Source of the DNA: Bacillus sp. 103mf
Lineage (GTDB): Bacteria; Bacillota; Bacilli; Bacillales; Bacillaceae_G
Assembly: GCF_900116295.1 (NCBI RefSeq)
Contig: NZ_FPAF01000001.1
Span: forward strand, 1,237,160-1,301,159
Direction: 5' to 3'
Length of the DNA stretch: 64,000 bases
Shown: positions 53,295 to 58,741 of the stretch, in pieces
Position numbering within the stretch: position 1 is the first letter of the stretch
Layout of the letters: the number at the start of each line of letters is the position of its first letter
Program-made: the position numbers and the translations under genes
The notes under the pieces: model-generated
The model's input: the letters and a program-made list of their open reading frames with translations, nothing else
What the model was told of the DNA's origin: nothing
Databases searched by the model: none

Positions 53295-56200
53295 TTATTT
53301 AACTCTTTGACGAAGGAATAACATTCCACCTAAAACGAACAATACCATACCTCCAACCATTGAAATCATCTCTGCTGGTGTTCCGCCTGTTTTAGGAAGT
53401 AATACTGTCGTATTATCATTTTCTTTAATGGACGGAACTTTTGGATCGTTATTTGGATCATTATTTGTATTGTCCTTAGGAACTTCAGGTGTAGGTTCCT
53501 TAATCTTTGTATTCGTAATGTCATAACCATTCACTTCTGATTTATATCCTGCTACTGGTTGCTCTTTTACTTCATACTTATATGCTTTGCCGTCTACATC
53601 ATATGCTTCTAATCCTGTAAACGCATATTTCCAACCGCTTGCTTCTGTTACTTCTTTCGTGCCAATCACTTGGCCATTTTGTAGTAAGTCTACTTTGATT
53701 GTGATCGGACGACCTGTCGCATTATCGTCTTTCCATGTCTTCGTTCCTTCTACTATTGTCTTTCCTACTTTTGTATTCGTAATGTCATAACCGTTTACTT
53801 CTGATTTGTATCCGTCCACTGGTTGTTCTTTCACTTCATACTTGTACGCTACTCCGTTCGCATCGTACGATTGTAGATTGTCAAACGTGTATTTCCAATT
53901 CTTTGCTGCCGTTACGTCTTTTGTATCAATTACTTGACCATTTTGGAGTAAGTCTACCTTAATTGTGCTTGGACGATCTGTCGCATTATTATCTTTCCAC
54001 GTTTTTGTTCCTTCTACTTTTGTTTGGCCCACTTTTGTATTCGTAATATCATAACCGTTTACTTCTGATTTGTATCCCGTCACTGGTTGTTCTTTCACTT
54101 CATACTTGTACGCTACTCCGTTCGCATCGTACGCTTGTAAATTGTCAAACGTGTATTTCCAATTGTTTGATGCTGTTACGTCTTTTGTATCAATTACTTG
54201 ACCATTTTGGAGTAAGTCTACCTTAATTGTGCTTGGACGATCTGTCGCATTGTTGTCATTCCACGTTTTTGTTCCTTCTACTTTTGTTTGGCCTACTTTT
54301 GTATTTGTAATGTCATAACCTTTCACTTCGGATTGGTATCCTGCCACTGGTTGTTCTTTCACTTCATATTTGTACGCTACTCCATTTGCGTCATAAGCTG
54401 CTAAATCTGCAAATGTATATTTCCAATTATTTGACGCCGTTACTTCTTTTGTATCAATTACTTGGCCATTTTGCAGTAAGTCTACTTTGATTGTACTTGG
54501 ACGATCTGTGGCGCTGTTGTCATTCCACGTTTTTATTCCTTCTACTGTTGTCTTTCCTACTTTTGTATTCGTAATGTCATAACCGTTTACTTCCGATTTG
54601 TATCCGTCCACTAATTGTTCTTTCACTTCATACTTGTACGCTACTCCATTCGCATCGTACGCTTGTAGATTATCAAACGTGTACTTCCAATTTGTTGACG
54701 CTGTTACGTCTTTCGTGTCAATCACTTGGCCATTTTGCAGTAAATCGACTTTAATTGTGCTCGGACGATCTGTCGCATTACTGTCATTCCACGTTTTTGT
54801 TCCTTCTACTTTTGTTTGACCTACTTTTGTATTTGTAATGTCATAACCTTTCACTTCGGATTGGTATCCTGCTACTGGTTGTTCTTTCACTGTATATGTG
54901 TAAGCTACTCCATTCGCATCGTACGCTTGTAAATTGTCAAACGTGTATTTCCAGTTTGTTGCTGCTGTTACTTCTTTTGTATCTACTACTTGACCGTTTT
55001 GTAGAAGGTCTATTTTGACCGAACCTGGGCGATCTGTTGCATTGTTATCGTTCCAAGTCTTTGTTCCTTCTACTTTTGTTTGACCAACCTTTGTATTCGT
55101 AATGTCATAACCACTTACGCTGGATTGATATCCCGCTACCGGGTGTTCTTTCACTGTATATGTGTAAGCTACTCCATTTGCATCGTATGCTTCTAAATCT
55201 GCGAATACATATTTCCAACCCATTGCTGCTGGTACGTCTTGTGTTTGAATTACATTTCCATTTTGTAGTAAGTCCACTTGGATCATTGCCGGACGGTCTA
55301 TTGCATTTCCGTCTTTCCACGTCTTCGTTCCTTCTACTGTCAATTTCGCTACTTTTGTGTTTGTAATGTTGTAGCCATTTACTTCCGATTTATATCCCGC
55401 TACCGGATGTTCTTTTACTGTGTACGTATAAGGAACACCATTTGCATCATATTGTGCTAAGTCTGCAAATGTGTAGTTCCAATTGTTTGCTGCTGTTACT
55501 TCTTGTGTTTGGATCACAGTTCCATTTTGCAGTAGGTCTACTTGGATTGTTGTTGGTCGATCTGTTGCATTGTTATCCTTCCAAGTTTTCGTTCCAGTTA
55601 CTGTTGTTTTGCCTACTTTTGTATTTGTAATGTCATAACCGTTTACTTCTGATTTGTATCCTACTACCGGATGTTCTTTTACTATATACGTATAAGCAAC
55701 ACCATTCACATCATATGCTTCTAGATTTGTAAATGTATATTTCCAATTATTTGACGCTGTTACGTCTTGTGTTTGGATTACATTTCCATTTTGTAGTAAG
55801 TCTACTTGAATCGTTGCCGGACGGTCTGTTGCATTTCCGTCTTTCCACGTCTTCGTTCCTGCTACTGTTGTTTGACCTACTTTTGTATTCGTAATGTCAT
55901 AACCCTTTACTTCCGATTTGTATCCGTCTACTGGTTGTTCTTTCACTTCATACTTGTACGCTACTCCATTCGCATCGTACGCTTGTAGATTGTCAAATGT
56001 ATACTTCCAATTGTTTGATGCCGTTACGTCTTTCGTGTCAATCACTTGACCGCTTTGTAGTAAGTCTACTTTGATTGTGCTCGGACGATCTATGGCGTTG
56101 TTATCCTTCCACGCTTTTGTTCCTTCTACTTTTGTTTGGCCCACTTTTGTATTCGTAATGTTATAACCGTTTACTTCTGATTTGTATCCCGCTACCGATT

Positions 56201-57653
56201 GTTCTCTTACTGTATACGTATACGCATTTCCGTCATTATCATATGCAGGTATATCTGCAAACGTATAGTTCCAGTTGTTTGCCGCTGTTACGTCTTTCGT
56301 GTCAACTACTTGACCGTTTTGTAGTAAATCGACTTTGATTGTTGCTGGACGATCCGTCGCATTGTTATCTTTCCAAGCCTTCGCTCCTAAAATAGATGTC
56401 GATTTCACCTTATTCGGAACCATCAGCTTTACGCCTTTTTCAGCATTTGCATCAATTGTAAAAGGCACTTTTGCTTGTGGATCAAAATCCAAATAGTTTG
56501 GAGCAGTAATCTCTTGTACATAGTAATTGCCTGGATTTAAAGTAGGGACTTCAACCATACCTTGTGCATCCGTTGTATACGTACTGCCAATTTGCTGACC
56601 AGATTCTGTATATAATTTAAACGAGACATTCGGTATGAATTTTGTTTCATCTCCAGCAATGTGTTTTATAATTCTTAGCGTTCCTTTAGGTGGTAAATCA
56701 CCTTGAGCACCGCCGCCCGCGTTTATATTTTTAGTCCAAGCACTATCTGAAAACGTTACTGGTTGCTCATTTAAAATCTGGTAATTAATCGTAAAATCAT
56801 TAAAAAAATTCTCTTGGCTCATTCCATTTTCAGTTATAGTAGCGGTATACCTCAAAATAAAAATCTTACCACTGACCTGATCCTTATAAGCTCTAATTTC
56901 AAAAGAATTACTATTAAAAGTGATTGTTCCATAACCCTTATCAATGAATTGTTGAGGTGTTAACGCTTCATTTCCAACTATTAAAGTAAAACCAGCCTGA
57001 TCAAGTGTTTGGCCTGATTGTGAAGTATCCGACAAAACAATATCAGAACTTAATTGCTCCTTGTTATTATTTATAGGCAGTTCCCACTTCACTTTAGTTG
57101 GAGTATCCGGGTCAATTCTACCTGTTTTGTAGGAAAATGGAGCTGTACTCTCACCACCTTCAGTTGGCCCCTTAATGGTTACCCTTTGCGTTTGTAAATT
57201 TGTACCTAAATTTGTGTCAACTGTTATCGTTTGCCCTGTTGCTACATTCTGAGTCGCTTGAACTTCAAAATAAAAATATCCTCTAATATTTCGAAGTTTC
57301 TCAACTACATCAGTAAATGTACATAAAACATTTGTTGTCGTTACTTGACAAGTTCCAAATGTAACACCAGCATCATTCTTTAAATCAATCTTTCTACTAT
57401 ATCCTTGTAATTCTTGAGGTAACGTTAACGTTAGCGTGTCTCCAGCCTTCATTTTATTTCCAGATTTATCACTAAAATTAACTTTTATTCCCGTTCGTTC
57501 TCCATAACTGAGATCTGTTTTGTCGAACGTAAAGCTATCAACAAATCCACTTGTATTTAACTCTTGTGCTTTCGCTATTATAGGCATCAAACTCTGACCT
57601 ATAGTAAATATAAAGATGATGATAATTGAAAAAATAGAAGTTACTTTCTTCAT
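53295..57653 (-). CDS. LPXTG-anchored adhesin with eleven Cna-B repeats
   Basis: 1452 residues from ATG 57653 (1455 if splicing adds M-H-Y). Signal peptide KKVTSIFSIIIIFIFTIGQS; N-terminal Ig-like collagen-binding/Cna-type domains (residues about 35-330); a SpaA-like domain (GTLRIIKHIAGDETKFIPNV ... YYVQEITAPNYLDFDP); then eleven near-identical Cna-B repeats of about 87 residues (GTKTWKDNNATDRPSTIKVD ... GYKSEVNGYDITNTK, bases about 53510-56390) with the lysine and glutamate used for isopeptide bonds; finally LPKTG, a hydrophobic helix and RQRVK for sortase anchoring. No ribosome binding site precedes ATG 57653: a group II intron ends six bases upstream. Confidence 0.92.
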   Translation of the reverse strand: MKKVTSIFSIIIIFIFTIGQSLMPIIAKAQELNTSGFVDSFTFDKTDLSYGERTGIKVNFSDKSGNKMKAGDTLTLTLPQELQGYSRKIDLKNDAGVTFGTCQVTTTNVLCTFTDVVEKLRNIRGYFYFEVQATQNVATGQTITVDTNLGTNLQTQRVTIKGPTEGGESTAPFSYKTGRIDPDTPTKVKWELPINNNKEQLSSDIVLSDTSQSGQTLDQAGFTLIVGNEALTPQQFIDKGYGTITFNSNSFEIRAYKDQVSGKIFILRYTATITENGMSQENFFNDFTINYQILNEQPVTFSDSAWTKNINAGGGAQGDLPPKGTLRIIKHIAGDETKFIPNVSFKLYTESGQQIGSTYTTDAQGMVEVPTLNPGNYYVQEITAPNYLDFDPQAKVPFTIDANAEKGVKLMVPNKVKSTSILGAKAWKDNNATDRPATIKVDLLQNGQVVDTKDVTAANNWNYTFADIPAYDNDGNAYTYTVREQSVAGYKSEVNGYNITNTKVGQTKVEGTKAWKDNNAIDRPSTIKVDLLQSGQVIDTKDVTASNNWKYTFDNLQAYDANGVAYKYEVKEQPVDGYKSEVKGYDITNTKVGQTTVAGTKTWKDGNATDRPATIQVDLLQNGNVIQTQDVTASNNWKYTFTNLEAYDVNGVAYTYIVKEHPVVGYKSEVNGYDITNTKVGKTTVTGTKTWKDNNATDRPTTIQVDLLQNGTVIQTQEVTAANNWNYTFADLAQYDANGVPYTYTVKEHPVAGYKSEVNGYNITNTKVAKLTVEGTKTWKDGNAIDRPAMIQVDLLQNGNVIQTQDVPAAMGWKYVFADLEAYDANGVAYTYTVKEHPVAGYQSSVSGYDITNTKVGQTKVEGTKTWNDNNATDRPGSVKIDLLQNGQVVDTKEVTAATNWKYTFDNLQAYDANGVAYTYTVKEQPVAGYQSEVKGYDITNTKVGQTKVEGTKTWNDSNATDRPSTIKVDLLQNGQVIDTKDVTASTNWKYTFDNLQAYDANGVAYKYEVKEQLVDGYKSEVNGYDITNTKVGKTTVEGIKTWNDNSATDRPSTIKVDLLQNGQVIDTKEVTASNNWKYTFADLAAYDANGVAYKYEVKEQPVAGYQSEVKGYDITNTKVGQTKVEGTKTWNDNNATDRPSTIKVDLLQNGQVIDTKDVTASNNWKYTFDNLQAYDANGVAYKYEVKEQPVTGYKSEVNGYDITNTKVGQTKVEGTKTWKDNNATDRPSTIKVDLLQNGQVIDTKDVTAAKNWKYTFDNLQSYDANGVAYKYEVKEQPVDGYKSEVNGYDITNTKVGKTIVEGTKTWKDDNATGRPITIKVDLLQNGQVIGTKEVTEASGWKYAFTGLEAYDVDGKAYKYEVKEQPVAGYKSEVNGYDITNTKIKEPTPEVPKDNTNNDPNNDPKVPSIKENDNTTVLLPKTGGTPAEMISMVGGMVLFVLGGMLFLRQRVK

Positions 57654-57659
57654 ATAATG

Positions 57660-58411
57660 GTAATAGGTAAACCTTTGAAGCCATCTCCAGCTTTTCCCCC
57701 ACCCCACACCGTGCGTGCGACTTTCACCGCACACGGCGTTCCATCTAATCAACAAGTTCAGATAGCTTTTGTTATCGCTATCTTTATGTAAGGGACCTGT
57801 TCATTAGACTCGGGGCCTTCCCTCCACTCCTTATTATCAGAGTTTCATTGGTACTACGCCCCTGCTGCCATCCCTATTCATAACTCTTTCACAGCTTAAG
57901 CTGTTCCCCAAGTTATTACTACATCGTTAGGGATTTCTGACGTTCCGAAACTGCTAGGTGTATAACTATACGTAGGCCCTACCTTTGTCCCGATTACCAC
58001 TTCAAGTAAGAAGTTAAAGCAACCCTTTAGCTTTATCCATTACAAACCGTATGATATTGTTTTGGAGATAATATATTGACGCCCATTTCTAGGAACGGAT
58101 ATACGAGACGTACATTCAGCAGTTCGTCATTGATTGCTCAAATCCTGACCATATATAGCTCCCTGTCCGCATCACTTTCGCAGTATGTTTAACCTTTCCT
58201 CAGCTTCACCTGTTAGGGCTACTCGATGCGACTTCACCCCGCTTCACACGCAGTCGTTACCAATTTACGCATGGGGGAGTATTAACAGCCATCTAGTCGT
58301 GAGATTTGTTTGGGTATCCCACCGTGGTCTCACAGTTTCAGTTGTTACTAACAATCGTTAGTCCAGACAATCCCTCGAGCGTGAACCCGATTTCTGCCTA
58401 ACGTCACACAC
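57660..58411 (-). mobile_element. ORF-less group II intron in the 5' end of the adhesin gene
   Basis: 752 nt on the adhesin's coding strand. Domain V (57706-57739) is exactly 34 nt: ACGCCGTG / CACGGTGT (8 bp), 2-nt CG bulge, TGCGGT-GAAA-GTCGCA, with triad CGC. Domain VI follows, with a candidate branch-point A at 57668, eight bases from the 3' end. The 5' end GTGTG fits GUGYG and the 3' end ...CCTATTAC fits the AY rule. No reverse transcriptase or other ORF is present, so it would need a protein from elsewhere to splice or move efficiently. Joining the exons gives ATG-CAT-TAT-ATG-AAG, in frame with the adhesin. Confidence 0.85.
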
Positions 58412-58432
58412 CATACTCTTTATCCGCCTCCT
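58412..58432 (-). promoter_or_regulatory. Exon 1: Shine-Dalgarno and start codon of the adhesin gene, upstream of the intron
   Basis: AGGAGG (58427-58432), 12-base spacer, ATG (58412-58414), immediately followed by the intron. Without splicing this ATG reads VCDVRQKSGSRSRDCLD then stops. After splicing it becomes the adhesin start. The same stretch is the only good ribosome binding site upstream of the adhesin. Confidence 0.7.
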
Positions 58433-58741
58433 AATGAATGATATTAAGATGGCTTCTGGTACAAATGCACGATAAGAACGACTTGATAGTTGCTAGTATT
58501 TTGTCTCTTTCGACCGTTATAAACTTACTTTCTATATATGCCTATCTACTCTTCAAAATCATTAGTTTCTCTAATATAGCTATTAAATCTAATAATTCGA
58601 ATATTGACATACCTAACAACCAATGGTAATATACAAATTGACTAAATTATGTTTTTGCCATCATTTCTATCAAATCATGTAAACTGAAATTGTACCGTAT
58701 TACCATCTCGTGCTGAGCATAAACGCCATTAATTTGTTCAT

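What the first reader, a model, noticed from the sequence alone, without database searches (positions are those of the whole stretch)
57651..58432. A group II intron separates the start codon from the rest of an LPXTG adhesin gene, so translation seems to need splicing
Seen: a complete 34-nt domain V with 2-nt bulge and GAAA loop, a GTGTG 5' end, an ...UUAC 3' end with a candidate branch A eight bases away, and no intron ORF. Upstream of the intron stands AGGAGG-N12-ATG; downstream the gene continues CAT-TAT-ATG-AAG. Excision fuses them in frame, while the unspliced mRNA gives an 18-codon peptide and has no SD before the downstream ATG. Known parallels: a c-di-GMP-gated group I intron that rebuilds an SD in C. 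difficile, and group II introns in C. tetani surface-protein genes. A group II intron used as an on/off gate for an adhesin start codon would be new or rare. Possible pairing of GAGTAT (exon) with ATACTC (58277-58282) and of CGGATA with TATCCG (58096-58101) is weak support, because 6-base matches occur by chance.
Basis: partly seen in the sequence, partly recalled or inferred. Interest (0 to 1): 0.88.

Follow-up and report, generated by a model that had tools for sequence, protein, structure and literature searches.

The report
Ribozyme intron splitting an adhesin's start
A self-splicing RNA element without any protein of its own, closely related to one found in a DNA helicase gene of another bacterium, sits directly behind the start codon of a cell-wall adhesin gene, so the adhesin can probably be made well only after the element has cut itself out of the messenger RNA.

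Summary
The intron is real: minus strand, 58411..57657 (755 nt), with Rfam matches to domain I (51.9 bits) and domains V-VI (57.8 bits) and no reverse-transcriptase ORF. AGGAGG-N12-ATG ends the 5' exon; a 1452-codon collagen-adhesin-like LPXTG ORF continues in phase.

ATACTC is not EBS1: four relatives with other exons have it too. EBS1 is CATAC (58053-58049), pairing with GTATG, i.e. with the start codon.

The closest relative found (87% identity) is an ORF-less intron in pcrA of another Bacillales genome, whose 5' exon also ends TATG. [quoted passage not shown] Nothing found supports a dedicated on/off gate (no aptamer, one D5). Splicing, a trans maturase and an intron-free adhesin allele could not be tested; the window's genome is not held. 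New variant of a known kind.

The parts
57657..58411 (-). ORF-less group II intron, 755 nt (5' GTGTG ... ACCAT 3')
   Evidence: RF02004 and RF00029 matches; 541 of 619 columns (87%) plus 94 of 101 at the 3' end identical to the pcrA intron of G417; junction rule from nine relatives
58427..58432 (-). Shine-Dalgarno AGGAGG in the 5' exon
   Evidence: sequence; duplex -12.1 kcal/mol
58412..58414 (-). start codon ATG, last three bases of the 5' exon
   Evidence: sequence; its frame is closed by a stop 27 codons upstream
58421..58426 (-). IBS2 (CGGATA), exon -15..-10
   Evidence: pairs with EBS2
58412..58416 (-). IBS1 (GTATG), exon -5..-1, contains the start codon
   Evidence: pairs with EBS1
58096..58101 (-). 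EBS2 (TATCCG)
   Evidence: 27 bases after the GACGAA motif; in 10 of 16 relatives the best IBS2 match also starts at +27 or +28
58049..58053 (-). EBS1 (CATAC)
   Evidence: motif+75; aligned with EBS1 CGTAGGC of the G417 pcrA intron at motif+73
58156..58346 (-). 5' part of domain I (Rfam group-II-D1D4-5)
   Evidence: 51.9 bits, E 3.3e-8; in a fold of window 58411-57796 with two relatives, 43 of 179 predicted pairs have a both-sided change that keeps the pair
57706..57739 (-). domain V, 34 nt, CGC triad
   Evidence: RF00029 57.8 bits; sequence; triad read by eye
57657..57704 (-). domain VI with bulged branch A at 57664
   Evidence: RF00029 alignment; bulge assigned by eye
53295..57656 (-). 3' exon: LPXTG adhesin ORF (first internal ATG 57653; 1452 codons before the stop): Big_8, SpaA, 11 Cna_B, LPKTGG
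   Evidence: residues 25-265 match collagen-binding adhesin Cbm with 83.4 bits, far below its cut-off of 700

Best explanation
This is a splicing-competent-looking, ORF-less group II intron of the RF02004 type that descends from introns homing to a pcrA helicase motif (Ala-Tyr|Val-Gly-Ile-Thr). It inserted ectopically where an exon offered its recognition bases (IBS2 CGGATA, IBS1 GTATG, then T), which happened to be the ribosome-binding region and start codon of an adhesin gene. In the precursor the intron's EBS2 and EBS1 pair with the spacer behind the SD and with the start codon. Two-step splicing, probably helped by a maturase supplied in trans by another intron, joins SD and ATG to the adhesin frame; unspliced RNA can give only an 18-residue peptide from that start. 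Shown by sequence: intron anatomy, junctions by homology, in-phase exons, EBS/IBS loops, kinship with the pcrA intron. Inferred: splicing in vivo, trans maturase, ectopic origin, masking of the start codon by EBS1.
For: Rfam D1 and D5-D6 hits in order and spacing. Closest relative, 87% and 93% identical in its two aligned pieces, in pcrA of G417, the third of three introns there; a 74% relative with an RT-like ORF sits at the same pcrA site in G675; an uninterrupted pcrA site in G636 shows the empty site. Host genes by NCBIfam: RecJ and AddA over the cut-off; PcrA, RecA, RadC, PolC and an SNF2 helicase as fragments below it. Exon ends: G417 ...CCTATG|T, window ...GTATG|T. Over 17 introns the matched exon-loop pairing is reached by 0 of 5000 shuffles for EBS1 and 1 of 5000 for EBS2. 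EBS1 differs between window (CATAC) and G417 (CGTAGG) so that each fits its own exon. SD duplex -12.1 versus -3.8 kcal/mol for the downstream ATG. Adhesin ORF of 1452 codons intact.
Against: No RNA evidence. The window's own genome is not held, so a trans maturase, a pcrA copy of the intron and an intron-free adhesin allele are untested. The window's EBS1 match alone is weak (13% of random exons reach it; EBS2 1.7%). EBS1 mismatches at -6; IBS2 ends at -10, while in 10 of 16 relatives the best match ends at -7. SD-ATG spacing of 12 is long. In G675 pcrA the EBS1 pairing is poor, and in G417 pcrA no good EBS2 was found. L028, left out of the test, has its best IBS1 match in the other loop. The EBS zones were chosen.
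Confidence: 0.66

Rival explanations
1. The intron no longer splices well (no maturase, weak EBS1 fit), so the insertion is a recent knock-out of the adhesin gene.
For: No RT seen in the window's ORF lists (by eye); own genome not searchable; EBS1 only 5 bp; RF02004 score of 51.9 is low: 14 of 22 relatives' hits score 89.7 or more.
Against: The other 8 of 22 score 42.6-78.9, among them the pcrA introns at the same site in G417 (56.3) and G675 (51.8), which must splice if pcrA is essential there, as I recall it is in B. subtilis; domain V intact; 94 of 101 identical over the D5-D6 end; 43 of 179 predicted pairs with compensating changes among three introns; adhesin ORF intact.
Confidence: 0.17
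2. A domesticated gate: splicing of this intron is regulated and switches the adhesin on and off at the level of its start codon.
For: IBS1 contains the start codon and IBS2 abuts the SD, so folding of the intron and ribosome binding should compete (inference); precedents in C. difficile (group I intron, PMC3984707, passage) and C. tetani (PMC3919590). A distant adhesin relative in G037 stands right behind a c-di-GMP-I riboswitch.
Against: No riboswitch family in 57500-58700 up to E 10 nor at gathering score in the window; one D5 only; close relative sits in a housekeeping gene; C.te.I1 itself showed no clear regulation.
Confidence: 0.12
3. The adhesin is translated from a start inside the intron or from ATG 57653, and the intron is irrelevant to it.
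For: The adhesin frame is open back into domain IV (TTG 57755); an SD-like G-rich stretch (-9.9 kcal/mol) precedes ATG 57684.
Against: ATG 57684 is out of frame (31 nt from 57653); TTG 57755 and ATG 57653 have duplex energies of -1.5 and -3.8 kcal/mol; a start in D5-D6 would need the catalytic core unfolded (inference).
Confidence: 0.05

Closest known systems
[quoted passage not shown]
   Same: 541 of 619 and 94 of 101 columns identical, same 5' and 3' ends, 5' exon ends TATG, no RT ORF
   Different: sits inside a conserved helicase motif, not at a start codon; domain IV is about 200 nt longer
C.te.I1 of Clostridium tetani (PMC3919590; parts 1-3 of 5 read)
   Same: [quoted passage not shown] EBS1-IBS1 fixes the 5' splice site; splicing decides which reading frame follows
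   Different: four D5-D6 units joining a long 5' ORF to four 3' ORFs, 5' site shifted 8 nt, no EBS2; here one D5-D6, GUGUG start, EBS2 present, and the 5' exon gives only SD and ATG
c-di-GMP-controlled group I intron of C. difficile (PMC3984707, passage only)
   Same: splicing decides whether a ribosome-binding site stands before the start codon of an mRNA
   Different: different ribozyme class; has a c-di-GMP aptamer, here none found
Group II introns in repair genes: radC of Oceanobacillus iheyensis (O.i.I2, passage in PMC4424553) and recA of Geobacillus kaustophilus (seen only as a reference title there)
   Same: same kind of host genes as the relatives found here
   Different: O.i.I2 encodes a degenerate maturase in a coding site of radC; here no protein and a start-codon site
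ORF-less group II introns of phages, e.g. three of four in Listeria phage LPJP1 (PMC12350094, passages)
   Same: ORF-less; an RT of another intron is proposed to act in trans; LPJP1 also matches the window's D5-D6 end at 80%
   Different: phage genes; only the D5-D6 end matches
B. cereus group introns with a 3' extension (PMC3261151, part 1 of 6 read)
   Same: group II introns in Bacillus
   Different: about 2.7-2.9 kb by the coordinates in Table 1, with a 53-56 nt extension behind domain VI; here the intron ends 7 nt after the branch A

Membership tests
Group II intron | domain V of 34 nt with 2-nt bulge and domain VI with bulged A | tested here: met
   RF00029 57.8 bits, gathering 40; sequence; bulged A by eye
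Group II intron | domain I-IV ribozyme core 5' of domain V on the same strand | tested here: met
   RF02004 51.9 bits, gathering 34.5; consensus fold with 179 pairs, 43 with compensating change (three sequences)
Group II intron | GUGYG 5' end and AY 3' end, EBS1-IBS1 and EBS2-IBS2 pairing | tested here: met
   GTGTG and AT ends; EBS loops by comparison of 17 introns, the window's own EBS1 match being weak on its own
Group II intron | self-splicing or maturase-assisted splicing | not testable with these tools
   needs RNA
Mobile group II intron (retroelement form) | intron-encoded reverse transcriptase | tested here: not met
   no such ORF in 57657-58411
Bacterial class B (as in C.te.I1) | class B RNA structure and class B intron-encoded protein of relatives | not tested
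   only the Rfam D1 model RF02004 was matched; class names come from papers
Regulated splicing switch (C. difficile type) | ligand aptamer or other sensor coupled to splicing | tested here: not met
   no riboswitch family at gathering score in the window nor up to E 10 in 57500-58700; an unknown sensor is not excluded
Alternatively splicing intron (C.te.I1 type) | more than one D5-D6 unit | tested here: not met
   one RF00029 hit in 64 kb
LPXTG (MSCRAMM-like) adhesin | signal peptide, Ig-like/Cna_B domains, LPXTG with membrane anchor | tested here: met
   Big_8, SpaA, Cna_B x11; LPKTGG near the C-terminus and N-terminal hydrophobic stretch read by eye; binding function not tested

The most novel reading that the evidence does not exclude
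The intron has become a translational gate: because its EBS1 pairs with the start codon itself and its EBS2 with the bases next to the SD, the folded intron hides the ribosome-binding site, and ribosome binding and splicing exclude each other. Splicing efficiency (maturase level, magnesium, temperature) would then set or switch adhesin expression.
Probability: 0.12. Interest if true: 0.85.

Novelty: new variant of a known kind. Interest (0 to 1): 0.55.

Why it matters
It would be a bacterial gene whose start codon and body meet only by group II splicing, with the exon-recognition pairings lying on the ribosome-binding region, so splicing and initiation can be tested against each other in one small reporter. 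The kinship with a pcrA intron gives a traceable case of a group II intron leaving a housekeeping site for a surface-protein gene, and the relatives show introns without RT, up to three introns per gene, in repair genes, although ORF-less introns have been called rare in bacteria (PMC4424553, passages).

Tried and rejected
Rejected: 3' end at UUAC (relatives' reading frames); ATACTC as EBS1; CATACT at 58187-58182 as EBS1 (6 bp, but not in the loop that relatives use); start within the intron; c-di-GMP control (no aptamer found). The idea that G417 is maturase-free (0 GIIM hits) was dropped when RVT_1 found one RT there.

Led nowhere: genome-contig scan with the adhesin (59 pattern matches, 0 relatives); adhesin in 19 family genomes (0 of 19), in plasmids (5 records, 28-30%) and in 397 genomes of the order (5 of 397, 26-34%), so no intron-free allele; DNA searches of plasmids and phages (74 and 11 records; the 40 and 11 listed match only around D5-D6).

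Census of RF00029 places in 19 family genomes: 51 of 66 were examined, 15 were not fetched. Seven of 51 have a start codon within 25 nt behind the intron that opens an ORF of 43-189 codons; one is internal to recJ (L032), the other six (L036, L057, L070, L072, L077, L078) were not followed up, so other start-codon insertions are not excluded.

Junctions by reading frame: nine introns resolved (third introns of L089 and L137, second of L137, L127, L032, L028, L034, L038, L130); eight end in AT, L130 in AC. L029 and L037 were not resolved; L030, L031, L033, L035 look intergenic; further introns were not used. Dropped from the EBS test: L028, L131, L133, L134 (two) and the first L089 intron. Zones were chosen after and several introns share a site, so the shuffle counts overstate the evidence.

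Slips mended: and notebook entry 1 use 57655 for the internal ATG; the right base is 57653. The first two attempts to hand in this report were returned (a check request, then for the format).

Full report
WHAT IS THERE. On the minus strand the Rfam group II models hit in the right order: D1 (RF02004, 58346..58156, 51.9 bits) and D5-D6 (RF00029, 57741..57657, 57.8 bits); they are the only two matches at gathering score in the 64 kb. Within the intron no ORF exceeds 58 aa except the adhesin frame that runs back to 57755. Upstream stand AGGAGG (58432..58427) and, 12 nt on, ATG (58414..58412), followed at once by GTGTG. Read on without splicing, that ATG gives 18 codons and a stop. Downstream the ORF from 57653 to 53295 (1452 codons and a stop) has Big_8, SpaA and eleven Cna_B stretches and an LPKTGG end, and is weakly like collagen-binding adhesins Cbm and Cnm (83 and 79 bits, cut-offs 700).

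WHERE IT SPLICES. I used relatives to fix the ends. In nine introns whose two exons belong to one recognisable gene (pcrA: third intron of G417, second and third of G675, one of G636; recJ in G417 and G457; polC in G318; an SNF2 helicase in G672; a CHAP-like gene of an E. faecalis plasmid) frame and expected residues are kept if the intron starts at the G of GTRYG and ends two bases after the domain VI helix: AT in eight, AC in one (L130). The expected residues are from my knowledge of these proteins; names were checked by NCBIfam on fragments for all but the CHAP-like gene and the G457 recJ. An uninterrupted pcrA motif in G636 shows the empty third site. As that is one codon, the phase is unchanged: the ATG closes the 5' exon and the first base of the 3' exon, 57656, is in phase with ATG 57653. 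The bulged A of domain VI (57664) is then the eighth base from the end.

EXON RECOGNITION. Scanning introns of this type showed a loop about 27 bases after a conserved GACGAA that pairs with exon bases around -12..-7 and a loop 73-97 bases after it that pairs with exon bases up to -1. With 17 introns the matched pairing sum was 94.0 for EBS1 (shuffled mean 65.9, sd 4.7; 0 of 5000 shuffles reach it) and 83.0 for EBS2 (68.1, sd 3.7; 1 of 5000). In the window EBS2 is TATCCG (58101..58096) with IBS2 CGGATA, and EBS1 is CATAC (58053..58049) with IBS1 GTATG. The second pairing covers the start codon. Taken alone the window's EBS1 match is weak (13% of random exons do as well; EBS2 1.7%); the position in homologous loops carries the argument. 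The zones were chosen after and some introns share a site, so the shuffle figures are generous; G675 pcrA pairs poorly at EBS1 and G417 pcrA at EBS2.

WHERE IT CAME FROM. Of 397 genomes of the order, 5 had a match to domains I-IV at E 1e-6 and one, G417, a near-complete one: 541 of 619 columns, plus 94 of 101 for the D5-D6 end. That intron is the third of three introns in pcrA, none of which holds an RT; G417 has seven RF00029 hits and one RVT_1 hit, inside its addA intron. Of 24 genomes of G417's family one more, G675, had a relative (74%): it sits at the same pcrA site and there holds a 631-codon ORF with a YADD box. The pcrA exon ends CCTATG|T and the adhesin exon GTATG|T. The window's EBS1 with its next base, CATACG, would pair over six bases with a pcrA site that uses the alanine codon GCG; that is inference, no such pcrA was seen. 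Among the three introns, 43 of 179 predicted pairs have both-sided changes that keep the pair. The likeliest history is that an ORF-less intron of a pcrA-homing lineage landed on a start codon that offered its recognition bases.

HOW IT MOST LIKELY WORKS. The exon ATG has an SD duplex of -12.1 kcal/mol, the downstream ATG 57653 has -3.8, and 35 hand-picked gene starts of the window have a median of -10.2. The ribosome can therefore start well only on the 5' exon, and only spliced RNA carries the adhesin frame behind that start. Splicing probably needs a maturase in trans, as is held for nearly all ORF-less bacterial introns (PMC4424553, passages; C.te.I1 is named there as the exception). In the precursor EBS1 and EBS2 bind the start codon and the bases beside the SD; I infer that intron folding and ribosome binding compete. 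None of this was seen in RNA.

GATE OR ACCIDENT. Nothing found here speaks for a sensor: no riboswitch in the window at gathering score, none up to E 10 in 57500-58700, one D5 only. A distant adhesin relative in G037 does follow a c-di-GMP-I riboswitch, but none was found before the window's gene. C.te.I1, the nearest published parallel, was mostly unspliced and not clearly regulated (PMC3919590, part 3). I therefore favour an ectopic insertion tolerated because it splices, and give the gate 12%.

NOVELTY. Paper searches for group II intron with start codon and adhesin, with ORF-less and surface protein, with pcrA, with recA and Geobacillus and with translation initiation listed, by titles and abstract starts, no bacterial group II intron placed directly behind a start codon; these cover an open-access library only, and most listed papers were not opened. 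From recall, chloroplast petB and petD have very short first exons before group II introns, so the arrangement as such is not without precedent. ORF-less introns are also reported from phages (PMC12350094, passages). I file it as a new variant of a known kind.

LIMITS. The window's genome is not held. By MurC the nearest of the genomes searched are 83-86% identical; the genus is unnamed. No intron-free adhesin allele was found.

Noticed in passing
L089, L126, L127, L128 (G417); L130, L129 (G636); L137 (G675); L131, L132 (G547); L134 (G404); L135 (G478); L032 (G457): Group II introns recur in recombination and repair genes of Bacillales: pcrA (three introns in one gene in both G417 and G675), recJ, recA, radC, addA. 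Several lack an RT; G417 has seven D5 hits and one RT. NCBIfam matched L089, L126, L127, L128, L130, L131, L137; the others are named by eye.
   Followed up: partly
G417, G636: The Pfam GIIM maturase model finds nothing in two genomes in which RVT_1 does hit, at introns of this kind (1 and 5 hit rows), so searches by GIIM can miss this class.
   Followed up: yes
L138:4449-4536 minus, ORF as listed from 4442: A distant adhesin relative (26% over residues 3-320 of the query) in G037 stands directly behind a c-di-GMP-I riboswitch (67.5 bits).
   Followed up: no
L030:3714-4034: An intron without RT in G457 carries in its domain IV a 106-aa ORF that looks like an HNH endonuclease by eye.
   Followed up: no
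window 53506-56375: Array of 10.9 copies of a 264-bp unit, 81% matches, coding for the Cna_B repeats of the adhesin.
   Followed up: no
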